A stretch of DNA of 61,151 nt from Deltaproteobacteria bacterium (lineage in GTDB: Bacteria > SAR324 > NAC60-12), in NCBI GenBank assembly GCA_002685535.1, contig NYXK01000186.1, positions 75,591-136,741 of the forward strand, read 5' to 3'. Position 1 is the first letter of the stretch; the number at the start of each line of letters is the position of its first letter. The notes beneath the pieces are model-generated. The model was not told the DNA's origin and did no database searches. It saw only the letters and a program-made list of their open reading frames with translations. A program made the translations under genes and the position numbers. Positions 1,853 through 48,902 of the stretch are shown piece by piece.

Positions 1853-4084
1853 TCATAACAATACCATTAACGAAGCTATGATAACAAGCCCGCCAATGCA
1901 CTTCGAGATACCTCGGCCAGAAGCGACCGAAACAAGGATGTTCGTCGAAGGTGGGGTCCCGGCTGGCTCTCCGATTGAGGTTGGGGTGGGAAATGATAAA
2001 GCTGCCGTATTGATGGGCAGAGATGTCTCGGTGGGACAACTTGTGGTGGTCGTCTGAGTACTGGGAAGAACGCACGAGCAGGTGCTTTGAGCGGAGCAAG
2101 GAAAGGGTCCCTCGGTGCCCGTCCACTAGATCGAGTTAGCTGATGGGACGATTCACCACGAGTTCAAACCTACTGTCGATGTCTGTCCTGTGCATGTACA
2201 GTCTTGTGGACATGATGTCAGTGTAGAGATTGCCGTGGATGTGATGGTCATGACCGGATACTCGAGCTCACAACTCTGTGATGTTGCGCTTTCTGTAGTA
2301 TATTCACCGCTTCGCGCTCCAAGTAGATCGCTCGAACAGAGCTTCAATATAGTGGTCTTGGTGACATTGATCGTACTCGTAATTTTTGCCGTCGAAGTCT
2401 TCACTGAAGACCTGACAATGCTGATCGTGGTCGTATCCTTGACCGTCACGTGCACAGTAGCCGTCTGTGTTTGAGTTGATCGGAAAAGGTGTGTGGTGGT
2501 CTTCGTAGTCATGATAGTTGAAGTCGACTTGACGATCGTTGTTGTCACTGCTGTTCTGGTAGATGTGGATGAGCATGTCCCTGTAGTTCTGGTGACGATT
2601 GACGTAGTGAAGATGATGCTGGTTGGAGCACAAGTACAAATGCTGGTAATTGATGAAGTTGCCAGTGATGTTGTGGAGGAAAGGGCAAGTGCTGTAGATG
2701 TCCCACTTTGGGAAGATAATATTGATGGCAATGAGGAAGCTTGCGAAAGAGTTGACGACAGCAGAGAAGCTGAAGACAGCGAATTAGTTGAAGACCGCAA
2801 AGAAGTTGAAGCGAGTGAAGATGTCGGAAGAAGTGAAGATACTGGGAAACTAGAGCTTGAAAACGACGTCGAGGGTGTTGATAGTGACAAAGTTTGAGAG
2901 AACGCACTTGACAACAGGGACGAGCCTGGACCTGAATCAAATCGGGTTAGCGAGGATTTTCTGAAAGAAGGCAAGAAAGGAATGCTCTGACAGAACCCCG
3001 GACCCAAAAACAATTCTGAATTCAGTGAGGGAAGTGAGGCCGAAATATTAAATCAAGGCCCACCCATGCTGAGAGAAGTAAACGTACCAGTAAATGTGGC
3101 GCTTAGAGGTACTGAGGTGGGCTGCACCGTAGAAAATGGCGTTGTAGATGTTGGCGATTGAGTTGCAACCGTGGACGGGTTCGTAGTTGGATCTACGGTC
3201 GCGCTCGTAGGTAGGCCCGTAGACAGGTCCGTAGGCACATTTGTCGCGCTGGGTGTCAGGCTCGAAGGTACCAAGGATGTGCTGGTCAAGATGTTGGAAC
3301 CGGAGGTTGAACCGAGGGTCGCTGGAACTGACGGTGTTGAACTCGGCTGCGCAATCGAGCTTGAAGATGCCACAGCACAAGCAGCTGGTACATTGACAAC
3401 ATTGGTATCCAGTGTCACCGTAGCCCCAAGGCCAAATGCTCGTCCGGCTAACGAGGCACCAGTACCAAAGGTAACGGATTGGTCTGCAAGTATGGTTCCA
3501 GAAAGAGACGTTCCGAGTCCTATTGTCGCAGAGGATCCAACTGCCCAAAAGACTTGACATTCCTGTCCGCCGTTGATGAGGACGACCGCCGAATTGGATG
3601 CTGTTGTCAAAGCTGTTCCGATCTGGAAGTACCATGCATCATCTGCTGCTCCTGTCCCCACCAATGTAAGAGTGCCAGTAAGCTGTGCCGCAGCGCTGAA
3701 GGTGTAAGTCCCTGGTAATAGATTTTGATTCCCGAGGTCTTGTCCTGTGAGATCTGCGTCCGAACTCAAGCCATTGATGGTCGTAAAGGCGGCAGTCGCA
3801 TCTAAGTCGACCGTCGTTGTCTGCCCTCCGATGGCAAGGTCCCCGTTGATGATTCCTGGAGGGAAACCAGTAACGCTTGTGTCTCCTGTACCGAGATCAC
3901 CATTGATTACTGTTGCTCCGGTGTTCGTTACACTCGCAGCGCCATAAATGCCGTAAGGTTCGGCAGTACCCAGGTCGATCTGGGAATATTAGCTAGGATA
4001 GTCACCGTTCAGATAGGAATAGCAAACTTGAGCGGAGCAAAGAGTGAACAGTTCGAAAACGCCAAGAATAACAAGCAACCTCAT
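1853..4084 (-). CDS. GPI-anchored Ser/Thr-rich surface protein with N-terminal DUF3494 (ice-binding-like) domain
   Basis: Spliced model: exons 4084-4028, 3979-3088, 3015-2174 and 2125-1853, about 687 residues. All junctions are GT-AG and keep frame. Exon 1 encodes a signal peptide (MRLLVILGVF...CSAQ). Exon 2 begins with the DUF3494 pattern: the SVTNTGATVINGDLG and GFPPGIINGD motifs, then G-T-Y-x-F, a WYFQIG strand, and a C-terminal VTLDTNVVNV segment, about 200 residues in all. In known ice-binding proteins this is a discontinuous beta-solenoid. The rest is a long Ser/Thr/Val stalk, with Cys residues near the end and a hydrophobic tail (GGLVIIASLMVLL) typical of GPI attachment. A wall-bound, heavily O-glycosylated product is inferred. 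DUF3494 proteins in fungi may bind ice, or act as adhesins with no ice activity; the sequence does not decide between these. Confidence 0.8.
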
Positions 4085-9344: not shown

Positions 9345-12300
9345 ATGTTCCATCAACTTCGACTCGACTCCTGGATCGAGGACAAGATGCTGGACAACGG
9401 TGAAAACGGTGAGCTGCCAGCCGGCATGGACGATTCCATTTCTCCTTCTACAGAATTCAACGCCACGGAATTCAAGGCCAGCCTGAACGCTTGCTTGAAG
9501 TCAATCAGGAGCTCAGGTACTTTCGCGACCTTCGATCGCATGAGAAGTGCGCCTGATCCTGGCATTTACTTGAAGGACCCTGCTACTTCCATCTCACTCC
9601 CTTTGTCAGACGAAGATGCGCAGAAGATCAAGCTGGCTTGCAGCGCTGCATACAGCTCGGAAGGCGAGGCACTTTCCGTCGCTTCGAATGCTTGGGGAAT
9701 TACCTCAGGTAAACTTGAAGTTCAGAGTGAGGCGTGGAAGCAACGTCTCAGAGGCATCGTTATCACTGCATGTATTAACTTGGGTCTGTACGCGACTCGC
9801 GACAGGAGATTTTCCCGTACACTATTCGACTCTAGATCTGCTGAGATTTCCGCTGAGCTCTCCAAATTGGTGCTGTGCGAGCAGGGTGATCTGTCTGAGC
9901 CTAGCCAGTGGTGAGACTTCCATATATTCTCCGACAGGCACTCATTGATGCTCGCAGCTCCGAAGACGTTCCCGGCATATTTGCAACTCTTTCAATTGTG
10001 CTTCCAACAAATCATTCTGGCGGCGAAATCACGGTGATCCATGCAGGAGAAAAGAGGGTGTTTGATCCCTCGCCATACTCCAATACCGAAGCATCCTGGA
10101 CTGGCTGGTAATGAAGCGAGAATTCTCTGCGTTACAAGCTTCAGCTGACTAGTCAATAGCCTTGTGGACGCCTCATATGAGAATAAGCCAATTTTGACAG
10201 GTCGTCGATTGATCCTCAAATATAATCTCGTTCATGCTATAGACAAGTCCACTATATTGGCCGAGAAAGCCAGAGATGGCGCTCATGTCGCCCAACTCCG
10301 CAATTTATTCTCGAATTGGAAAAGAAATTTCCACAATGAGCAGTACCCACGAACGCTGGGCTATGTACTTGAACATTACTACACGAATTTCTGGGCAAGC
10401 TACAGTCTAACAGGTCGTGATCACCATGTCGGCTCCCATCTTCGAGATATTTGCGAAGAGTACGGACTCTCGCTCTACATTGCTGAAGTTGAGCTCGAGG
10501 TTTCGGGAGTCTGTTGTGATTATGACGAAAATGATGAAATTGAAAACTGGGAAGGAACTGATCCAGGATCTGTCGGATTCCACGCCTTCACCGGAGACCC
10601 TGATCGACACACCATCCTGAGAAAGGTCTATGACATGGATGGGAGACACATCGAGCAATGGCTTGATTTTGATGAGAAATACTTCGTGCAGCAGGATACA
10701 TTCGCAGGTGTCGATCCCGATGAGGAATATATGGATGTGGATCAAGAAGGCGACCCGGTTCTCACAGAAAATGGAGAAGTCACCCTGCATCACGTTTATC
10801 TCAGAACAGTAAGACTCCCGCATTGACTGTAGCACTACTCGAGCTGATTGCCTTGATGAAGATCGCACTTGTCATGCCCAAATATCACCGAGCCGAGTTT
10901 TTTGTAGGCCCCTACCTTGACACGGCAAGCAAATCTTACCAACGAGGCGAGAGAGCGACTCGAACACCAAAAGGCGTTGCTTCTATGGTTGAGGAATTGT
11001 CTAGTGATTTGGCTCATAGCCCAGGCAATCTTAGTATCTTGAGCGGCCTCGAGAAGATCTGTAAATTGGTAATCCGGCGGTCCCAAGAACTCATGGCCTC
11101 AGATGCATCATATCGCTGGAGTGAAGCTAGGACCAAACATAGCCCTTTCTTCTCTGGAGAACTCAGGATTCGGATATTGTTGACGTGTATCGACATTGGT
11201 AACAAAGAACTGTTTCTTGAAGCATACGATCTTTTCCAGGACAGATTGCCTATTTCATCCTTCAGGAATATTGGGGTGGCTGTTAGGCGGTTCAATTTAG
11301 AGTCAATGCTGCCGAAGTGAGTCTGTTCCAAATCCCAGAACGAGTGGTGCTAGAGCTGACTTGGTGCAGGACAATTGCTCGGATTTTGCAGTCCTCTCAC
11401 CAGCTCCAGACACAATTCGACATTCTACAGTCAATCTGGGCTGGTCTGACCGAGGAAGCTGATAGGCTGGAGACCGCGCCTGATAATGCTTTGAAGGGTT
11501 GGATTGGGGCCGCAATACATCAAGCAGTCGATCGAGACAACAATTACATGGGCTTCGCAGATCATGGACACGCTCTGGCCTGCTGTTGCAAAAAGTTGGC
11601 AAGCGTCGCACCCGACGACATACACAATAAGTGCGTACTATCGGTCGACCTATGAATCATTCTGACGTAATTGGACAGGTTTCTCCCTGCTATCAGGCGA
11701 CAGTTCGCCGACAAAGATAATGTCACAAGTACAGCCATGGCATTTCTAGCATCCGTGGCAGATGATGGAGCTACCGAGGCGCTACCTATGAATCTCGCGA
11801 ACGAAATATTCCTTTATATAGTCCCTGGACTTGCGGAACGGTTTAGCTTTGGCTATCATCAGTCTTGGGATTATTCTAAGAAGGAGACTCAACAAATCGA
11901 CCATTTCTTGGCGTTTTTCGACCGCAGCTACCAGCTTGGACTTCTGAGCGAACTCAATGTTATAGTCTCGGGGCTGACCTCTGAATCCATGGGTAATGGC
12001 GATATTAATATTACGCGATTTAACACCTACCTCCTACCGATGCTCAAGCGTCTAGCGGCCTGGCTCTTGGGCACCATGGTTCCTGCTCAGGGCTCGCCCG
12101 TTCAGGCACTGTTCCAAGGACTCTTGCCTGTCTACATCAAAAGATTCGTAAAAAAAGAACCCCGGCCACCTACAGACTGGACTCGACCAAAATCACCGGC
12201 ATATTGCTATTGCAGAGACCATGCTGCCTTCAACGAATTCCTACAAGACCCAAATCGGGAAATTGGCAGATTCGTCATGAGCATACGGCGGCAAAATCAT

Positions 12301-12672
12301 ATTCAAGCAGCAGTGGATAAGACCGAATTCTACACTGACATTGACCGCAGCGAGAGGAATCGTGCTCTCATTGTCATCAAGAATCATCAAAGACATTTCG
12401 TTGCTGATCACGAGGCATGGCAGAAGCGCAAAGACACTGCAGCAGCGAATATCAAAGATCTTGCCTCTGAAGCAGAGTTGAGAGCTTTACTTGGAGATCT
12501 TTATGATTCTGTCACGACTGCTACGATAACTGAAGAAAGTGAGGTAGTCGGTATAACACAAGTTGATCAGTCGCGGCCTCTTGAGAATGAAGTTGGAAGC
12601 TCACGGTCCTTTGGCAAGCGAAAGGGTACGAAGAGAAGATATGTCGAGTCGGATGATGAGGATGACGCCTAA
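9345..12672 (+). CDS. 2OG-Fe(II) dioxygenase-like protein, copy A (probably non-catalytic)
   Basis: Six exons: 9345-9910, 9958-10107, 10160-10808, 10862-11316, 11370-11630 and 11679-12672; about 1024 residues. Residues near 180-260 follow the P4H-like double-stranded beta-helix of a fungal 2OG oxygenase family: P-G-I-F-A-T-L, then GGE, then G-R-R-L-x-L-x-Y. From memory, active members have H-T-D ahead of PGxF and a distal H before the PV/PI...G-x-R segment. Here those positions read S-Q-C and Y (DASYENKP). All three metal ligands are therefore replaced, while the 2OG-contacting Arg remains. About 650 helical residues follow, then a short cysteine cluster (YCYCRDH), an FNEFL motif and an acidic tail with a basic KRKGTKRR run. 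It is a tandem paralogue of the next gene, with every intron at the same position and phase. The role is unknown; a scaffold or sensor is possible. Confidence 0.8.
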
Positions 12673-13200
12673 GGAACAGCTCTTCTGGTATGCATCAACG
12701 CTTGAGCATCAAGAGTTTGTGAAGACGCATGGTTGTTGCCAATTCGCTTCATCTATACTCTTGCTTTTTACGTGGGTCGCATAGTGAGCTGGTGCTTGGG
12801 AGGAGGCTGAAGAATTTACAGACGAATACCTCAGGACACAATTACGAGCAGATCACTTGCTAGCATAATTAATTTACAGGAATTTGCCATTACTTACCTG
12901 TCCATGTCCAGGGAATTCGAACCATGTCTCCGTAGAGCGGGAGGCGATGATAAAGCCATTTAGTTGTCCTCTGAGGTTACGAATCACTTCCTGTCCAGAG
13001 CCCTTCCTCACCAAACTGTGTGATCAAGAAGCACACCCTATATGAGTGTCTGCAAATTTCACGCCCAAAACTCAATTTCGTAAGTAAAGAGACATGTGAT
13101 GAGATCAGCTGACCGGACGCGAACAGTCGCGTCGTCCTTGGGAATCGCGTCACTCCATTTTCATCAACAGCGACATCTATTAGAACGGACACAGCAAGAG
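12673..13200. other. Intergenic between the two tandem paralogues
   Basis: About 530 bases. It holds the 3' UTR of copy A and the promoter of copy B. An in-frame ATG at 13096 could extend copy B by 35 residues, but the extension has no counterpart in copy A, so I place the start at 13201. Confidence 0.5.
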
Positions 13201-16200
13201 ATGTCTGATCTATCAAAACCAGCAGCCCTAGACCTCCGCGAAGGCCTCCTAGAGTGTCTCTCCAACATCGAACCTAGCGACACATCAAAACCATTCGCTA
13301 TCTCCAGCGCACTTCTGAACCCCATCAATCCCGGCATTGTGTTCACAGATGGACCCATTCTCGGATCCATTGGCCTTCCGCTCTCGGATAGAGATGCTGA
13401 AGTCATTCGAGCAGCTGGAACGCCGTTGCCCGTTCCCACAAACGTGAAAAGCGGCATGAACAATGCAGAGCCTGGAATTACCCCGCCAAAGCCAAATATC
13501 TGGGAGGTACCAGCTAGTATGTTCGCGCTGCGAAATCCGGCTTGGGATGGCTTGCTGAAATGGATCGTGAAGAATGTAGCAAAGGGATTGGGTGTTGATG
13601 CAATGGGCAATGCGGTTTCTGCGCAGTTGAGTAAGGTGTCAATGGTTGAGGAGGGGGCGATGGTGGAGCCGAGTCGGGAGTGAGTTTCTTGTCTATCATT
13701 TTGAAAATATACTTGAAGCTGAGTTTTATTTGTACTGATATCGAATAGAGGCGATCAGACGGCAGCTGTGCCTGGAATGTTCGGTACTTTGATCATCGCT
13801 CTACCTTCTTGGCATGAAGGCGGTGATGTCCTTATCACGAATGTGGGGAATCCGGAGACCAAAAGTTTTGGTACGGCGGAGACCTCGGGGTTTGATGCTA
13901 GTTATATTGCTTGGTAAGTATTTATAGATCTGGGTAAATTTGTGTGATTAGGAGAGGAGACTGATGCGTTTGGTGTGGCTTAGGTTCCACGATGTTACAC
14001 ACGCGCTGAAGCCCGTCACTGCTGGGCGAAGACTTACCTTAACGTATCACCTTGTGCATGAAAATTTGGGTCCAGATGTACTGGCTGCTAGTTCGAACAA
14101 GACGTTTGGGAAGCTGGATATGCTGTTCTCGTACTGGCACGCCAATGTACAGGAGGAAGTCCTTCACTTGGGTTACCTGCTCGATGGGAAGTATCGCAAG
14201 AACCCTGATTTATCGTTTGATATGTTGGAGGGTGCTGACAAGGAGACCGTCACTTATTTGCGAGACGCCGGTAGCAAGCATGGTGTTTGCATATACCTTG
14301 CGGAGCTAACGCGGTGGGTTGATCTTAATGATTACGACGATGACTGGGGCGCCGACGACAGCGATTGCATCGATCAAGAAAGCGCCTGCACTTATCTGAC
14401 TAATGTAGTTGAGCTAGACGGCACTCAAATCGCGCAGAATTTGTTCTTCGAGGATGATTTTCTGGTCCAAGAAGATGCATTCGAGGCCGTAGACTACGAC
14501 GAGCACCTCTACCAAGAATCGCGGGCGATCTACCATCGGACGGTATGGAAACTTGTCCTTGTTCCGACCTCCATCTAACTTTGAGCTCTAGGTCGTCCTC
14601 ATCATGCCCAAGGAGAATCGACTTCGTTGCTTCATGACACCCACGGGACCGGTTACCAGGACGAGCCCTTACGGTAGCTTCGTCACAGAGAAAGGCCCAC
14701 CGTATGTCCCGGATGTCACAGGCTGGATTAACCGGCTATCAGCGAAGCTCTTGACGGAATCAGGTGGTCCCGATGATCGAAATGACATAGAAGCGATCTG
14801 CCAAGGCGTGCTCCGAAGATTCCAAGAATGGAGGACTAAAAGCCCCAACGATCCAAAACCCCATCCCGATACGGACTTGGCTAGAGTGATCTCTGCATGT
14901 GTCGAGCATGATAAGAGAGATATGTTCTTGGAGGGCTTCGGTATGTGCCCTCCGAAGGTTTCATCGTCGATGTTCAGGTCTGTGGGAATTGCTCTTGTCC
15001 GTTGGCAATTAGAAGAACTCCTTCCGCAGTAAGTGGCCTTCTTTCCTCGCCATGACGCAACATCATGCACCGATACCTGGAGGAACTACTCAATTTCTCT
15101 TTTTAGCTGCTTCCATTAACCACTTTTCCAGGATATCACAGCATCTCTCGGCTCTCAGCCAGCTGTCCAGCCGCTTCGAAATCATCGAAGCTCTGAAAGC
15201 AGGTGTGGCAGAGGCATCCCAGAAAACTACCTACGATGACACCAGGTTTCAAGAATGGACGAGAAACGAGGCCGATAAGACGATTTGTGCACCAGCAGTT
15301 ATTGCGACTGGAATAACCTCTGCAAGTGATGGAGTGCTCCTTGCAAACCACTGTGTAACACTACCAACCTCAGACATGACGAACAAGTAAGAGACAGACC
15401 AGACTTACTGGAAGCACCCCTGCTGACATTGGGAAGGATACTGCCGGCAGTTAAGAGGAACGTAAAGTGTACATCGATGACAATTTCGTTCCAGCTAGCT
15501 ATATTCGAAGCCTCTGTGGATGGCAGCCTCTCACCAGATGCAGCGCGCGATATCTTTAGCGGAGTCATGTCAGAAATGCTTCCCGACTTTGGACTTCGGT
15601 CGCTGGGCTCTGTGACTCTCGAACAACCTCCGAATGAGGAACTTCCCAAGTGGAAGTCCAAGTGGCATCCACCACCCCTGCCAGTCATGGTCCCTACTCT
15701 GCAGCGAATCACCGACATTGCGAGCCTTCTTTGCCACTGCCAACTCCTTGGTCTGGACCAGCATCTAAGTGCTCTTATTTCGAAGTTGGCTACCGAAGCA
15801 AAGATGACGGGTGTCGGTGATTTCCCCTCCACCTTCTTGCCCTTCCTGAAAGCACTTGGAGCTTCTCTCAGAAAGTGGAACATCGAAGTCCAACACTCAG
15901 CCTTCCAAGGTCTCTTTCAACACGTCATGAGCACCTACATCGAGCGATACATCCAACAACCACCACCCATATTCAAAGACTGGACACGAGAAACCGTCAC
16001 CTGCAAGCCCGACTGCAAAGACTGCGAAAAGCTCAACGAGTTCCTCGCCAATCCTCACAAGCAAGCAGCAGACTTCCTCGGCGGCGCATCGCGCAGGGAT
16101 CACCTACAGGCTCAAGTCGCTGGCACAGGGATCGAAGCTGAGCAGAGAAGGAAATATGCTTCCGGATCTGCATATGCCTTGTTCTTGACGAAGAATCAGA

Positions 16201-16466
16201 GATATATTGAAATTGGTCGTAAGGCGTGGGAGAAGCGTGGCGAGGAGACTAGGAATAGTTTTCGGGATATTGAATCCGAAGCGAATCTCAAAGCGCTGCT
16301 TGGAGATGCTTATGCGGCTATCATCTCGGGGACTTTGCCTGAGCAGCGAGCGATGCATTATGTGCCTCCTTTGGGGACGAGTGCTAATACTGCGAATCGT
16401 TTGCCACCGCCAGGTCCGAGAGGAATCAAGAGAAAGTCCGTGGAGATGATCGTGATCGATGATTGA
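13201..16466 (+). CDS. 2OG-Fe(II) dioxygenase-like protein, copy B
   Basis: Six exons: 13201-13679, 13749-13913, 13984-14542, 14592-15028, 15132-15386 and 15437-16466; about 974 residues. The domain order matches copy A. The core is better preserved: V-P-G-M-F-G-T-L, LPSWHEGGD, and FHDVTHALKPV with the distal His kept, then G-R-R-L-T-L-T-Y. The proximal H-x-D is again absent: the aligned residues are S-R-E, next to the first intron. Iron binding by the usual facial triad therefore looks unlikely. The C-terminal part contains C-K-P-D-C-K-D-C followed by LNEFL, the counterpart of the cysteine cluster in copy A, and a conserved R-R-x-H-L motif. The five introns fall at the same positions and phases as in copy A, which shows tandem duplication. 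Sequence identity is modest, so the duplication is old or divergence was fast. Confidence 0.82.
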
Positions 16467-20505: not shown

Positions 20506-23500
20506 ATGGAAGTGGTTGGACTCCTTGGAAGCATCACTTCTCTCATTGAAGCCTCTCAAAAGCTATTCAGATTTGCCCAAGATGTCTATGAGGCAGACAG
20601 CCAAAGATGGGATGTGTTACAGCAGCTCAGTTGCCTTGATGCTGTCTCCAATTCCATAGTCAAGCTCAAAGCAACCGATCCATATGGCAACTGGGTCGAA
20701 GACCTGGATCCGAATGATCCAAAGTCTCCAGCATGCGGCCTTATGGTAGCCGTTAGCAAGGTGGAAATTCTGCTCCAAGTCAACGTCGACTCTATGCCTT
20801 TGCGAGCGAAGCTAGAGAACTTCAAGTGGCATTGGAAGAAGAAGAAACTTGAACCCTTATTTCATGAGATCAACCAGCACTGCGTGAGTATCCTGATCGT
20901 CTTAGGCTGGGGACAGACGGAGATCTTGAGCAAGATTGGGTCGATCACCAGAACCACAGCCGACAACATCAATAGTATGAGAGAATTCATGGAAGAAGAT
21001 CGAAAAAAGCGGGATGAAGTGAATATGTCTATGTTACAGATGGCCGAGACTGTACGAAATCTGGAAGCCAGTGATAAAAGGAGACAGACCGAGCAGGAGA
21101 AAGCTTACAGGAAAGAGGTTGAGAAATGGCTCTCTCCACTAGATTTCCAAGCCCGGCAACAAGCGATCTTCAGAAAGCTGGATTCATTACAAGGAATCTC
21201 TATTGGACAATGGTTCTTTGAAAGCGATGCATTCGGGTATTGGAAGGAGGGCAAAATCAGGCTTCTGAAAGGTGTAGGAGAGCCGGGTGCTGGCAAGGTA
21301 CCTGCCCACGATGCATTTTTATCATATGTCTGACTGACATGTGAAACAGACCGTTCTAACCTCTGTCATCGTGGATAAGCTCACGAAAGAATCGCCTGGG
21401 ATCCCAGTGCTCTGCGTCTTCCTCGAGAAGGTCGAGAACCTCAAACAGACCCCAGAGGCTCTCCGAGGTAGTCTGCTCAAGCAGATGATTCAGTTCAAGG
21501 AGTGCGTGTGAGGCCCCCTCAGCATATTTCTCAGACTGATAAGCGTTTTCCTTCAGGTCTGGCCTGAGCCCTGATATTCGAAAAGCATTTGATAAAGCCA
21601 CGAGAACTAACACGGCTCCCGATGACAACCAAACTATCGAGCTACTGAAAGTAAGTCCCCAAAAACTCATGACTCATGAGCCACCAATCATCTATCAAAC
21701 TCGGTTTCCTAACTCGGCCTATGACAATCTAGGCAGAATTCGAACATTACTCTAGAATGTTTGTTGCGGTGGACGGCTTGGATGAAGCGTCGGAGGAAGC
21801 AAGATGGTTTATTGAGAATGACCTTCCGGACATTGACCCTAAAAAGCTAAGCATTTTCACAACATCACGACCCGATAAACCTAAGGACCTGGGTATGTTT
21901 TGCAATGCGTGTCATCAGGAATGTATCAGGTATATATCTACTCTAGGAGCTTGCCAGAGCATTTCCCTTTCGTTTATTTGGCTAATTTTGATCATCAGAT
22001 ACTTCCTATGTACAGACTGCGAGGAATGCGAGACATGCCATGAGCAGGACATCGAGTGCCTCACACTTTGTGTCAGTTGCTTTGGTGGGGGTGTCCGCTG
22101 CCCACACGACTCGGCTCACGAATTGCAAGATACCACGCAAGAAGAGTACGAAATAATGATATCGACCCCGGACAGAGACATAGAAAGATTTGTGATCGAA
22201 TCGATAAGGGCTGATATGCCTAAGAAACTTCCAAAGACAAGTTTGAGTCGAAACGTGGGGCGGAATGAACTTGCTCGTCGTTGCGCACAATTACCAGATC
22301 TCTTTGAACAAGTTCGGAAGTTCATCGTCGAGAAAGCAGAAGGAAGATTCTTACTTGCGAGGGAGTTCGTCAAATCTTTCAAAAAGAAACATACCCTGGG
22401 AGACATTAAGCGCATGTTGAAGACTCAGGGGTCAATCGGAATTTTCCCCCTCTACGATGAGGACATGGCCTGGATTGTGAAGCAGGAGAATGGTGGTCTT
22501 GCTAGAGAGGTCCTGTCCCTGGTATATCACACGAAGAGGACTTTGACTCTATTGGAGCTGCAACAGGCCCTGGCGACAAGAAATGGCGACATTGAACATG
22601 ATCCAGAAGATATCATCCACGAAGATGACGTCCTGAACGCCACGAAAGGATTGGTTGCGATCGACAGACTAGAGACTTCCGGGGATGATCTCGATGTGAT
22701 TGTGCGATTCGACCATTTAACACGACGGGAATACTTCGATACGAATTGGCAATCATGGTTCGAAACAGGACAGGTCGATCTTACGAACAAGTGTCTGACC
22801 TTCTTGAACTTCGAGATATTCACAAAGCCATGCGCTTCCGAGGACGCGTTCAAAGTCAAGGAGAAAAAGCTGCCGTTTGTGTCTTACGCAGTCCAATTCT
22901 GGGGAGAACACGTCAGAGATGTTGGCCGAGCTTCTACGGAAGTGATAGATCGTGCAGTGGCATACATGAAAAGTTCTTCTCGAGTCGATGCCTATATTCA
23001 AGCTGCTTGGGCAGCTAATACTCGGCATCGAGACAAGTGGGATGTGCGAAGATCGATTCATCCACTGCACATCTGTGGTTGGTTTGACCTAGGGCACCTG
23101 ATTCCAGCGCTAGGATATGGAACAGCCGATATCGACGTCGAAGAAACAACTCACCAGCAGACCCCACTCATGTATGCTTGCAGGCGGGGCAATGTTGAGA
23201 CCGTTCAACGCTTTCTGGAGCTTGGTGCTGATGTCAACAAGCAAAGCCGCAAAGGCAGAACGCCACTTTTTGAAGCAATTCAACGGCTTCAAAAAGATTG
23301 CAAGAGTCATGAACTCAACGACGATTCGAAATTTCTGAAGAAAGTGTTCAACAGCAAGGAAGATATCAAGAAAAGCGAACAAATCGTGAAGCTACTTCTA
23401 GCCTCCAAGCATGGCAATAATTTCAATCCAAATATCCGGAATCCCAAATTACTCCAACGAACCGCTCTAATAACTAGCATTGCATTCATGCAAGTTACAA

Positions 23501-25116
23501 TCGCCCTTGACATACTCAATCAAGATAAATTGGATGTCAATATTGCCGACGTCGAAGGAACTACTGCATTGTGTCTCTCTGCGCGATTTGGGATGACAGA
23601 AGTGGTTGCGAGGCTTCTACAATTTCCATGCATCGACATAGATGCCACTGAGATTGGTGATCAGCGGACTGCTTTGTTGTTCGCCGCCAGATACAGCCCC
23701 GTTACTGAGGTCGTGGACCTTCTCTTGAGCAAGGGAGCGAACCCGAACAAGGCGGACATGCGTGGCAGAAACCCGCTCGTCATGTCCATGCTCACCGATA
23801 ACGAGGATATTTTCCAGACATTTACTGGAAAATGCAGCCCGGTCATCGAGTTGACTTGCATCGACAAAGACGGCCGCAGTTTGATGCACTGGGCTGCAGA
23901 GGCTGGGAACGCATCTGCGATCAACGTACTTTACTCAAAGGGGGTTCAGGTAAACTCGAGGGATAGCCTGGGGATGACTGCTCTATATGATGCATGCCGT
24001 TGTGGTAAAGCTGAGGCTGCATCGAGGCTGCTTGAATTTGGAGCAGATCGAGATGTGAAAGACAACCTTGGGCGTACGCCCGCCAGGGTCGCAATGCAGT
24101 ATGGACATACTGAGCTGGTGGATATCTGCAATATTGAAGGGGAAGACCTGCCAGACACAATAGATCTCCCCGCGTGGTCGCTAGCAATAACGAGGCAGCT
24201 CGGCAAGATTACTGAGCTCGTTGCCTCGAATAAGTCGTCGCTGGGTATGAGAGAACCTCATACGATTCGTACCGCCTTGCATTGTTCGCTACTTGGCAAC
24301 TACAGGGACGAGGAAGACAATGTCCAAATTCCTATCCTGAGAACGCTTCTCAATGAAGGGAACATGTCAACCGACGACGGTGATAGATACGGTCAAACAC
24401 CACTCCACTTCGCAGCCATGTTCGGAAATCTCGAGGCGACTAAGCTTCTGCTTGAGCGCGATGCCTCGCTTGACGCAGTCGACGACTTCGGACTGACGCC
24501 CCTCTTGATTGCGTACAAGAACAAACATCTCAACGTCGCAACTTTACTTATCGAAGCAGGTGCTGCGATCGACTCATATCGAATGGACCTAGAGGAGCTG
24601 CTTTTTGCAGCACTCAAATTGGAAAGTCAAATCGCTGTCCACTACCTCATAGCTGCAGGCGCTGATCGCATGGCAATGGACGAAGATGGCCGCACACCAG
24701 ACATGATTGCCGAACAGTCCAAAGACAAAGAGCTGATCAAAATCATGAAAGCCGCGAGGAGCACGAGGATCAAAGCTCCTACCAAGAGTATGAGTACAAA
24801 ATATGTTGTCTCGGAGCTGAGAGATGCAATTGAGGAGGTTGATGAGATTCTCGAAGAGGCTCATAGTGGGATCATGTTCAATGGTGTTCCGGCGAGAAAA
24901 TATTGCCACACACCATTCTCGGCGAGAAATTTTGATTTTGGGAAAGAGGTTGAGCATGGCAAACTGGTGGAAGTAGAGGCGAAACAGATGCCGCATCTCG
25001 AAACGAGACCCAGAAGAGAGGATGAGGTTGAAAAGATGCTTGGGGATGTGTCGCTTTCAGCAACTTCTACTTTCTTCCGTCGTGGTTTGGTCGAAGAGCC
25101 TGCGAGAGCAAGCTGA
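20506..25116 (+). CDS. STAND NTPase with ankyrin repeats (fungal NLR-like)
   Basis: Five exons: 20506-21297, 21350-21501, 21557-21650, 21733-21929 and 21999-25116; about 1450 residues. The N-terminus (VVGLLGSITSLIEASQKL...) matches the helical N-terminal domains of fungal STAND proteins. The Walker A is G-E-P-G-A-G-K-T (about 258-265), split by intron 1 between Lys and Thr. Walker B is FVAVDGLDEA (about 356-365), followed by TTSRP. After this comes a Cys-rich insertion (about 402-450) with CNAC, CTDCEECETC, CVSC and C-P-H-D-S-A-H, resembling a ZZ-type zinc finger. A helical linker and winged-helix-like part precede at least ten ankyrin repeats from about residue 795 (TPLMYACRRGNVETV) to about 1370. 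Such proteins act in non-self recognition and programmed cell death in fungi. No effector domain at the N-terminus could be named. Confidence 0.88.
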
Positions 25117-45871: not shown

Positions 45872-47601
45872 GATTGCTCTGTTCCGTTTATTGCTACTGT
45901 TGTACGCTTGGAGTAGCTTAGCTTCAACCCAGTTCGGAAATGTAGTAAGGAATGTAGATCTAGAATGCATGAGGTGGCATGTTGTTACGCTTAGACTTTA
46001 ATTTGTCACTACTTTGGTGCACGGAGATAGCGTGTGCAGTAATGCAGTACATTATACAATGACAAAATTGACCTTTGCGCCCGCACCGATGAGAGAGTCG
46101 AGCTGGGTGGCGGGAGGCAGGGTAAAGTAACTCGCTTATTTAAGGGCAAATGTAAACAGCGATCATCAGTGTATGATGAATTACTAAGCTGTTACATGAT
46201 GAAAGCTAAGCTGTCACATTTTCTCGCTGGAATTGGGATTAACCCCAACCTGTTGAGTCAACGTGATTGAATTGTGAATTCTTCCCCCTTTCCACTGAGA
46301 TCCGGTCATTGCAGGGACATGACGCTAATGGTAGGTTGCACCTAGCCCTGGAACGAAGGCTAACGATCATCTCTCCGAATGCATCTTGGAACAGATACTT
46401 TATTTCTCCAGTGGTAAAACGAAGACGGTGGTGCTAATATCGAGGCGTCAACGTGTATAACATGGTTGAGTAACCCGGCAAACAGATAAATCAAAATATC
46501 TGGGTTCCGCAGAAAACAATGACTGCAAATCTCCTCACTGGGCAATTTCCCCACCTGTTGCATAGTAGGTAGATGTTTGACTGACATTGGTTTTTTGACT
46601 AACCTACACGGAATTTTAGGGAGTAAAGCCTAAAGGCACGCTCTTCTTGGAGGTATGGCTCCATATCTTGAAGTGAAAATGTGATTTTCCGCTTGTACTA
46701 CGTAACACCCTGATCTGCATCCAACCCAATAAAGCTCAAAGTCTCGAGCGCTACTCATGTCAGTATCTCCCGATGTGCCTCGAATTGAGTCGATGTCGTA
46801 CATCGTCGGGGAAGGCGAAAGAGAGGGGGAGTCTGTTCCATCGCAGATGTGATAGAGAGGAGAGAACTCACGGCATGCATCTGATTGGCATACTCTAAGG
46901 GTCGTAATCGACGGGAGAACAAACCCCTTCGTGTACTTGTGTGACGGCCAACCAAGTCAGAAAGTGTGTCGATCGCCGACATCGGATTATCCTTCCAGCT
47001 CGAGGCCAACTGCAAGCAATTCAAAGCTTGTGGTACTATCTACACGATATTGGAGGAGGACAGCACATGAGAGGTAATGAGGTGGCATCTGTCGAAGCTC
47101 CAGGTCCCTATGCTGTACGTTCCTTGCAGGTCCACGTATGCTGTGCACCTGTGTGCTCTGATGATCGTCAGTCGTACACTTCAGGTACGCTCCCGGAACC
47201 CGGTTACACTTCTCGGGACGTGATGCATATTGCCAAAAATTTACAAAGGCAGAAAAGCCGAAGCATTACTGGCCTCACACAAGAGGGAAATTTCCCTTTG
47301 GCATCCAGATCCGCTTGGTGACGATGAGCTTAGCCATTCGATCGCGAAGTGTGAAGATCTGGCTCGGGGCATGTGCTCATACGCTGGCAACTATTGAGTT
47401 ACCTCTCATGTATGGTAAGCATGGCAAAGTTCAGACGTATGTGCCTCTCCCTCTTCTGATTCTGTCATTCTGAATCGGCAGATTGATCTGTGATATCTCG
47501 GTTTCTTCACGAAACACTTGGACCCGAACGCCAGTCTTAACAGGGCCATTCCAGGTCAAAACTACATCACGACAGTCGGTGCTCGAACCCAAACGACGAA
47601 C
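45872..47601. other. Intergenic, 1.7 kb, upstream of the DMATS gene
   Basis: No supported coding exon. A 126-codon plus-strand frame at 46941-47321 has no family signal or splice partner. The part nearest 47602 should hold the DMATS promoter; a 28-codon non-ATG upstream extension of the DMATS frame is not supported by family alignment. Confidence 0.5.
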
Positions 47602-48902
47602 ATGCCGGCACCATGTACTCGAGAAACCATGGAGCCATGGAAAGTATTGAGTCGGAGCTTGACATTCCAATCTCCAGACCAGAAGTCATGGTGGAACTCA
47701 TTGGGACCCGTCGCTGGCGCATCCATGAGCCAAACAGGATACAGCATCGACGCCCAGTACAAGAACCTTCTTCTCATCTACTCAACGCTCATTCCATCTC
47801 TCGGACCATACTACTCGCGGAATCAGTCTTCTAGAACATGGAACGACTGTATGGCCAATCCCGACGGGCCTTTAGACGTCAGTGTCAACTATCAGGAGAA
47901 CTCAAAGTGCGCCTTTCGCATGACTATGGAGCCAGTGGGGATTCATGCCGGGACGGAGAGAGATCCTGTCAATGAGCTAGCTGCAAAACAATTGCTTCAA
48001 AACCTGGACAAGATACAGGCAGGGACGGATCTCAGCTGGTTCGATCATTTCGAGCAGATTGTGGTGATGAACAGCGATGCTCGTCGAAATCGTGGCACCA
48101 TCCAGTCAATTGGATGCAAATCTCAGCACGTCGTTGGAGTGGATTTCCAGGACGGTCCATTCACAGTCAAAGCATATGTGAGCCCTTTGCTAAGCTCGGT
48201 TATGACAGGAATAAGTTTTCTTGAAGTCATGTTTGGAAGCTTGCGCTCGCTCACTGAGAAGATGAATCTGCGTCTCGATTTGAAGCCCGTGGAGGATTAT
48301 TTGACTGGCAAAGATGGTGTTCTGGGAGAGAAGACCTACGTGTCGTTTGATTGCAAATGTCCGACCGAATCGCGTATCAAAATTTACTCAGCATTGTGGG
48401 TGACCAGTCTGGAAGAAGTTCGCGATCTGTGGACTTTGGGTGGAAGACTGACTGGCTCGATGATTGAGGAGGGGTTTGCTATTGTCGAAAAAGCATGGCA
48501 TTTGTTGCTTCCAAGACGCCTCCCAAATGGGGAAGAAAGAAGTCGGATCACGGTCAATTTCAATTGGGAGCTGTCTCCAAAAGACGGAAGCATTGCTCCG
48601 AAGCTCTATTTCCTGGTGGACGAAGACTTCGATGAACATGTGTCGAAGGCAGTGGTCTCACTTTTCAGAGATCTTGGTTGGACTAAGAATGCGGATACCC
48701 ATCTTTCGCTGGAGAAAGAAGCCTAGTAAGTTCTCACAGCTGCGACAAGATCCGTGATCGTGTCGGCTATGCTAACGATGCCAGTTCCATTCGTGAGTTC
48801 GAAGGACAGAGTAATGTTTACATTTGGCTGGCCATCGCATATTCGGCTGAAGGGCCATATATCACCGTCTATTCAAATCCTCTGGCTGGAGTGAAAGTTT
48901 GA
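47602..48902 (+). CDS. Aromatic prenyltransferase of the DMATS family
   Basis: Two exons, 47602-48725 and 48785-48902; 413 residues, within the usual 400-460. The N-terminus shows EPWKVLSRSL and the WWNSLGPVAG motif, then QYKNLLLIYSTLIPSLGP. Residues that hold the prenyl diphosphate can be placed: R in CAFRMTMEP, K and Y in FTVKAYVSP, R-K-Y in SRIKIY, K-Y in PKLYFLV, and the last Tyr in PYITVYSNPL (exon 2). These enzymes transfer dimethylallyl groups to indoles, tryptophan, tyrosine or related rings without metal ions. The acceptor and position are unknown. The start was set at the ATG that gives the family N-terminus. The gene is followed on the same strand by a methyltransferase and an MFS transporter, which suggests a secondary-metabolite locus. 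Confidence 0.95.

What the first reader, a model, noticed from the sequence alone, without database searches (positions are those of the whole stretch)
9345..16466. Tandem 2OG-dioxygenase paralogues that both lost the iron-binding H-x-D motif
Both proteins keep the P4H-like strand order and the G-R-R-L 2OG-contact segment, but the proximal H-x-D before PGxF reads S-Q-C in copy A and S-R-E in copy B. In copy A the spacing to PG(I/M)F equals that of the canonical motif as I recall it, so the residues are substituted, not deleted. All five introns are shared, yet identity is moderate. A duplicated, conserved, metal-less dioxygenase with about 650 extra residues suggests a new non-catalytic role, for example ligand sensing or scaffolding.
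Basis: partly seen in the sequence, partly recalled or inferred. Interest (0 to 1): 0.72.

Follow-up and report, generated by a model that had tools for sequence, protein, structure and literature searches.

The report
Twin fungal oxygenase-like pseudoenzymes
Two neighbouring fungal genes encode large proteins related to iron-using oxygenases of bacteria, but they have lost iron-holding residues that the bacterial relatives examined all keep, so they have probably been retained for a job other than that chemistry.

Summary
Copies A (1024 aa) and B (974 aa) are intact six-exon genes whose five introns share place and phase. They are not orphans. Bacterial relatives (753-802 aa in five plasmid records; PF13640 over its cut-off in 4 of 4 scanned) share the N-terminal part, P4H/PHD-like core and long C-terminal half (hhalign probability 100, E 9e-43). 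The "650 extra residues" are therefore a family trait.

In 85 of 85 bacterial relatives aligned, the site reads Y-H-D-H-R. A reads C-S-C-Y-R, B V-S-E-H-R. "Metal-less" fits A; B keeps the distal His and has Glu for Asp, so weak metal binding cannot be excluded. A third, shorter relative in the same bin is degenerate too.

The core is the best-conserved region between A and B (39.6% against 25-35% elsewhere). Of bacterial invariants, the last C-terminal part keeps 8 of 8 in B and 6 of 8 in A; the core keeps 11 and 12 of 24. Most likely these are retained pseudoenzymes with a binding or scaffold role, as argued for fission-yeast Epe1. That role is inferred.

The parts
9345..12672 (+). Copy A: exons 9345-9910, 9958-10107, 10160-10808, 10862-11316, 11370-11630, 11679-12672; 1024 aa
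   Evidence: open frame, five GT-AG introns; homology to bacterial family
13201..16466 (+). Copy B: exons 13201-13679, 13749-13913, 13984-14542, 14592-15028, 15132-15386, 15437-16466; 974 aa
   Evidence: homology
9903..9958 (+). Copy A S-Q-C at the proximal H-x-D position (AGC CAG TG|C, third codon split by intron 1, 9911-9957)
   Evidence: Bradyrhizobium H133/D135 = S/C; 85 of 85 bacterial relatives H and D
13672..13749 (+). Copy B S-R-E at the proximal H-x-D position (AGT CGG GA|A, third codon split by intron 1, 13680-13748)
10176..10178 (+). Copy A Tyr (TAT) at the distal His position
   Evidence: H191 is His in 85 of 85 bacterial relatives, Tyr in A
14000..14002 (+). Copy B distal His (CAC), retained
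10206..10208 (+). Copy A Arg (CGA), second R of G-R-R-L, at the presumed 2OG-contact position
   Evidence: R201 in 85 of 85 and in A, B and the third relative; the contact role is recalled
14030..14032 (+). Copy B Arg (AGA), second R of G-R-R-L, at the presumed 2OG-contact position
12172..12498 (+). Copy A C-terminal Cys/His module (C-x-C-x2-H ... H ... K)
   Evidence: 6 of 8 bacterial C-terminal invariants kept; third Cys is His, the Arg is Gln
15975..16307 (+). Copy B C-terminal Cys/His module (C-x3-C-x2-C ... R-x-H ... K)
   Evidence: 8 of 8 bacterial C-terminal invariants kept; includes the best-modelled part
12499..12669 (+). Copy A tail beyond the bacterial end, basic then acidic (GKRKGTKRRYVESDDEDDA)
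   Evidence: nuclear-signal reading is inference
16308..16463 (+). Copy B tail beyond the bacterial end (PRGIKRKSVEMIVIDD)
   Evidence: nuclear-signal reading is inference

Best explanation
A and B are retained pseudoenzymes of a large 2OG-Fe(II) oxygenase family. An ancestor like the bacterial proteins had a P4H/PHD-type core (H-x-D...H, Arg for 2OG), a long, largely helical C-terminal half and a Cys/His module. In the fungal lineage the proximal His was lost, perhaps before the A/B duplication (both copies use AGY serine codons), and the Asp (Cys in A, Glu in B) and, in A, the distal His (Tyr) were replaced. The fold and the C-terminal half were kept by selection. I propose that the dead core and the helical/Cys-His half now act as a binding surface, a scaffold or a competitor for the partners or substrate of an active relative, perhaps in the nucleus given the basic tails. 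Shown: homology, architecture, lost ligands, intact frames, regional conservation. Inferred: loss of catalysis, the order of losses, nuclear site, scaffold or competitor role, and the existence of an active fungal relative.
For: Homology over nearly the full length: blastp A against a Bradyrhizobium relative E 2e-29 and B E 2e-26 for the N-terminal part, plus separate C-terminal matches E 3e-6 and 5e-9; hhalign probability 100, E 9e-43, 697 columns. Y124, H133, D135, H191 and R201 in 85 of 85 bacterial relatives aligned; A = C,S,C,Y,R and B = V,S,E,H,R. PF13640 over its cut-off in 4 of 4 bacterial relatives scanned, but no 2OG model in Pfam for A or B, whole or core, nor in NCBIfam for their cores. 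A bacterial relative folds with a 2OG core: pLDDT 85.6, best PDB matches PiuC (E 9e-5), P. putida P4H and PHD2. The core is the most conserved region between A and B (39.6%), although 60 of 78 four-fold sites in identical residues differ, so time for decay has passed. Core invariant Gly/Pro 6 of 6 kept in A and in B; C-terminal invariants 8 of 8 in B and 6 of 8 in A. Precedents: Epe1 with H-x-E...Y and a non-enzymatic function (PMC7192584, passages); the OGFOD1 C-terminal domain, a double-stranded beta-helix without a metal site (PMC4396695, passages).
Against: B keeps one His and a Glu, and AspH variants with a single His ligand retain activity (PMC10947486). Only 12 (A) and 11 (B) of 24 bacterial core invariants survive, so the core has also diverged. 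A third relative looks truncated, which fits decay. The PDB matches of the bacterial core are modest (TM-score by target 0.35-0.54). No expression or binding data; with two full-length copies and no fungal orthologues on hand, selection is judged from intact frames and regional identity, not from dN/dS. Nuclear location rests on short basic tails only.
Confidence: 0.62

Rival explanations
1. B (not A) is still an oxygenase with a minimal Glu + His metal site, the proximal His being replaced by water or by a residue from elsewhere.
For: B keeps the distal His, the Arg and a carboxylate (Glu) at the Asp position. AspH works with two His and its single-His variants keep activity (PMC10947486).
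Against: Y124 is Val and Lys138 is Gln in B (each invariant in 85 of 85), and the motif loop is 3 residues longer. In the AspH variants the apparent Km for 2OG rose roughly 100- and 190-fold, and earlier bovine work is said there to have found no activity for the matching variant.
Confidence: 0.17
2. A and B are relics on the way to pseudogenes: catalysis was lost by drift and the open frames are simply not yet broken.
For: A third relative in the same bin (G000:C13:27013-27593, minus strand) is also degenerate, with a 252-residue frame and no C-terminal half found; A and B are only 28% identical.
Against: Both frames of about 1000 codons and all five introns are intact while 60 of 78 four-fold sites differ; the core stays at 39.6% identity. 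The other five frames of exon 6 hold 6 to 23 stops each.
Confidence: 0.13
3. The motif is misread: alternative splicing or a different alignment restores H-x-D.
For: Donor 9908 in A would give P-S-H-S-E-D.
Against: One of 51 open pairs in A and none of 30 in B; that product is two residues short, uses a weaker-looking donor and keeps the distal Tyr. The motif falls in register with 85 aligned relatives, and intron 1 splits the same motif codon in A, B and the third relative.
Confidence: 0.04

Closest known systems
Large bacterial '2OG-Fe(II) oxygenase' proteins, about 750-800 aa (PF13640), e.g. WP_225006078.1 of Bradyrhizobium barranii
   Same: N-terminal part, 2OG core, long C-terminal half and C-x-C-x2-C...R-x-H...K module; homologous over nearly the full length
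   Different: Bacterial proteins keep Y, H, D, H, R in 85 of 85 aligned; the 38 bacterial rows end before the basic tail that A and B carry
Epe1 of Schizosaccharomyces pombe (JmjC)
   Same: A fungal 2OG-fold protein with a non-canonical site (H-x-E...Y) argued to act without catalysis (PMC7192584, passages)
   Different: JmjC branch, not PF13640 (recalled); keeps the proximal His, whereas A and B lose it
OGFOD1 C-terminal domain (Tpa1/Ofd1 alike, recalled)
   Same: A double-stranded beta-helix without metal site, retained in a functional protein (PMC4396695, passages)
   Different: There the dead domain sits behind an active one in one chain; A and B have a single core
AspH and its His-to-Ala variants
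   Same: 2OG oxygenases with fewer than three protein ligands
   Different: AspH keeps two His natively; its variants are laboratory mutants (PMC10947486)

Membership tests
2OG-FeII_Oxy_3 (PF13640) | Match over the curated cut-off (27 bits) | tested here: not met
   No 2OG match for A or B, whole or core; bacterial relatives pass in 4 of 4
Large bacterial 2OG-Fe(II) oxygenase family (homology) | Significant full-length homology | tested here: met
   hhalign E 9e-43 over 697 columns; blastp E 2e-29 and 2e-26
Functional Fe(II)/2OG dioxygenase | Facial triad H-x-D/E...H | tested here: not met
   A: S, C, Y. B: S, E, H
Functional Fe(II)/2OG dioxygenase | Arg/Lys for the 2OG C5 carboxylate (role recalled) | tested here: met
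   R201 in A, B, the third relative and 85 of 85 bacterial
Functional Fe(II)/2OG dioxygenase | Fe(II) and 2OG binding, turnover | not testable with these tools
   Needs purified protein
P4H/PHD-type double-stranded beta-helix | Fold | tested here: inconclusive
   Shown by model for the bacterial relative L106; for A and B only by alignment to that family
R3H domain (C-terminal module) | R-x3-H motif and PF01424 match | tested here: not met
   No R3H among Pfam matches of 7 C-terminal pieces; hhalign against 15 R3H sequences probability 0.5%, 6 columns; the conserved spacing here is R-x-H. Only a fold-level hint: 2lrr TM 0.70 of target, E 0.63
JmjC / Epe1 | JmjC-domain match (Pfam) | tested here: not met
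   No JmjC match for A or B

The most novel reading that the evidence does not exclude
A fungal clade of large 2OG-oxygenase relatives has switched as a group from chemistry to binding: the dead core is under stronger constraint than the rest and, with the Cys/His module, forms a nuclear nucleic-acid- or protein-binding scaffold that regulates active relatives, an independent counterpart to Epe1 outside the JmjC branch.
Probability: 0.22. Interest if true: 0.62.

Novelty: new variant of a known kind. Interest (0 to 1): 0.42.

Why it matters
Loss of metal ligands in 2OG oxygenases is known in some proteins (Epe1, the OGFOD1 C-terminal domain). Here a full-length, multi-domain family with an invariant site in the bacterial proteins examined has fungal members without it whose core stays well conserved. 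That gives a clean comparison (same architecture, with and without the ligands) for asking what a 2OG fold is kept for. It also warns annotators: A and B match no 2OG model in Pfam, while a homology search would name them oxygenases.

Tried and rejected
R3H idea for the C-terminal module: Foldseek matched SMUBP-2 R3H (2lrr, probability 0.99, TM 0.70 of target, but E 0.63) and PARN R3H (1ug8, probability 0.89, E 2.2). Pfam on 7 pieces, a PDB profile search and hhalign against 15 R3H sequences (a first try, held one wrong row) gave no support. Kept only as a lead.

Fungal relatives: viral contigs with A2 and A1, phage records, the first genome-contig scan with the B core and 98 genomes including the own one (only the own genome matched) gave none. 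In the own bin the bacterial profile found only A and B at E up to 1; it missed the third relative that the A+B profile found, so it would miss other diverged copies. A PF13640 protein on contig C160 (E 2e-6) was not examined. Intact fungal members are my recollection and come from no call.

PDB profile searches gave nothing better than E 0.3. Pfam gave A only sub-threshold matches (DUF3916 E 0.012, Sld3_N 0.2). PADLOC names the core of 3 bacterial relatives a generic 2OG model. Nine paper searches listed nothing that I recognised as this family or pair; I saw listings and starts of abstracts, and opened three papers. That is not proof that it is unpublished.

In one search, 6 of 80 loci were lost by frame choice; one search recovered all 80. 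Two of the 80 are incomplete (L042, L066) and were left out of the invariant count (83 rows). The 80 are the best of 361 by likeness to the Bradyrhizobium query, and one search pattern (F[AT]AFYADC) lies next to the distal His, so intact sites may be over-sampled. In the plain alignment the third relative is out of register by one at the motif; the shared intron puts T-S-C at H-x-D.

Full report
Observation. I rebuilt both genes. A: 9345-9910, 9958-10107, 10160-10808, 10862-11316, 11370-11630, 11679-12672 (1024 aa). B: 13201-13679, 13749-13913, 13984-14542, 14592-15028, 15132-15386, 15437-16466 (974 aa). All ten introns are GT-AG (47-103 bases), with matching positions and phases 2,2,0,2,2. 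A and B are 28% identical over 1038 columns (blastp E 4e-97). Intron 1 splits the third codon of the motif in A (TG|C), in B (GA|A) and in a third relative (TG|C). Enumerating splice pairs round intron 1 gave 51 open products for A, of which one holds H-x-[DE] near the joint (two residues short, distal Tyr unchanged), and 30 for B, of which none does.

What the window is. It lies in a 7.28-Mb bin filed as a prokaryote; 16 same-genus genomes, 51-92% complete, measure 1.3-3.3 Mb. The window holds eukaryotic genes (RPN2, mRNA triphosphatase beta chain, a tryptophan dimethylallyltransferase) and short introns, so I take it for a fungal contig in a mixed bin. The fungus is not identified.

Family. 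A and B match no 2OG family in Pfam, whole or core, nor in NCBIfam by core. The core of B, however, finds bacterial '2OG-Fe(II) oxygenases' on plasmids (22 records, best E 8e-12). Five that I fetched whole are 753-802 aa; a sixth, from Bradyrhizobium, is annotated as two frames. Four of four scanned pass the PF13640 cut-off. Aligned with A and B they share the N-terminal part, the core and the C-terminal half. A profile of 67 bacterial proteins (A3) aligns to the A+B profile with probability 100 and E 9e-43 over 697 columns. A scan of genome contigs found 361 relatives, of which the best 80 were kept.

Active site. With all 80 loci plus 5 plasmid proteins, Y124, H133, D135, H191 and R201 (Bradyrhizobium numbering) are present in 85 of 85. 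A has C, S, C, Y, R; B has V, S, E, H, R. The third relative keeps Y and R and reads T-S-C...T when anchored by the shared intron. Lys138, also 85 of 85, is Asp in A and Gln in B. Of 24 core columns invariant in 83 bacterial rows A keeps 12 and B 11, among them all six Gly/Pro. That the triad is H133/D135/H191 and that R201 and Y124 serve 2OG is recalled family knowledge, applied by position. A bacterial relative (L106) was folded with its alignment: pLDDT 85.6, pTM 0.67, core strands followed by a mostly helical C-terminal half. Its best PDB matches are PiuC, P. putida P4H and PHD2 (E 9e-5 to 4e-4, TM by target 0.38-0.54 among the first ten). The core assignment of A and B is thus by homology to a modelled P4H/PHD-like protein.

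C-terminal half. Of eight bacterial invariants in the last part (C669, C671, C674, L681, R698, H700, L725, K729), B keeps eight and A six, with Cys674 replaced by His and Arg698 by Gln in A. Elsewhere the score is lower: N-terminal 1 (A) and 2 (B) of 6, middle 7 and 5 of 15, residues 401-640 1 and 1 of 2. Exon 6 of B, folded with an alignment, gave mean pLDDT 69.9; ten-residue means are 66-95 between residues 91 and 290, best at 191-230 (88-95), and about 40 in the tail. The fold hint to R3H domains has no sequence support. A and B have tails beyond the end of the bacterial rows with basic stretches (KRKGTKRR; IKRK), perhaps nuclear signals.

Selection. Between A and B four-fold sites in identical residues differ at 60 of 78, near saturation, yet both frames are open. 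Region identities, with boundaries set by me, are: N-terminal 32.2%, core 39.6%, post-core 33.8%, middle 26.7 and 26.9%, Cys/His module 35.1%, tail 25.0%. Overall identity is 31.1% over 914 columns; a shuffled-B control aligned the same way gives 23.6% on average over 20 trials (maximum 27.1%), so values near 27% carry little by themselves. The core, without its ligands, is the best-kept region. This is the main argument for a retained function of the fold. It is not a dN/dS test.

How it most likely works. The least forced reading is a pseudoenzyme in which the core and the helical/Cys-His half serve as a binding surface. Fission-yeast Epe1, with H-x-E...Y, is a fungal precedent for non-enzymatic action (PMC7192584, passages); the OGFOD1 C-terminal domain shows a metal-less beta-helix kept in a working protein (PMC4396695, passages). 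The limit on this reading is AspH, where one His suffices for activity (PMC10947486, abstract and passages), so B is less certain than A. AGY serine codons in both copies at the proximal His suggest that this loss came before the duplication; that is inference from two sequences.

Novelty. The architecture is known in bacteria as annotated sequence; my nine paper searches (listed under Tried and rejected) showed no function for it. The fungal pair is a new variant of a known kind: pseudoenzymes with a 2OG fold are known, this lineage with this architecture was not found described.

Noticed in passing
whole window; G000 contigs C190 and C13: The window looks fungal inside a bin filed as a prokaryote; the bin is 7.28 Mb against 1.3-3.3 Mb for 16 same-genus genomes. 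C13 carries the third relative, so it is probably fungal too.
   Followed up: partly
L013 (G000:C13:27013-27593, minus strand): A third relative of A and B: 252-residue frame, P-T-S-C at the motif, distal Thr, intron 1 in the same codon, intron 2 shifted by one base, no C-terminal half found.
   Followed up: partly
L001 (G000:C160:10637-10942, minus strand): The only PF13640 match in the bin over the cut-off (E 2e-6); host and site residues not examined.
   Followed up: no
3056-3988 (-): Ice-binding-like protein (PF11999, E 5e-47), which hints at a cold-adapted fungus.
   Followed up: no
21733-25113 (+): Long open frame of 1127 aa with many ankyrin repeats.
   Followed up: no
47494-48723 (+): Tryptophan dimethylallyltransferase (PF11991, E 1e-83), possibly part of a secondary-metabolite cluster.
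   Followed up: no
L016, L017, L019: Neighbours of three plasmid-borne bacterial relatives include a DEAD/DEAH helicase with a SWIM protein, RtcB, and a WGR-domain protein.
   Followed up: no
L021:2261-4425: In Bradyrhizobium sp. ISRA435 the family gene is annotated as two separate frames, 298 and 353 codons with stops.
   Followed up: no
15975-16307 (+): The C-terminal module of B resembles R3H domains in fold only (2lrr, TM 0.70 of target, E 0.63); sequence tests were negative.
   Followed up: yes
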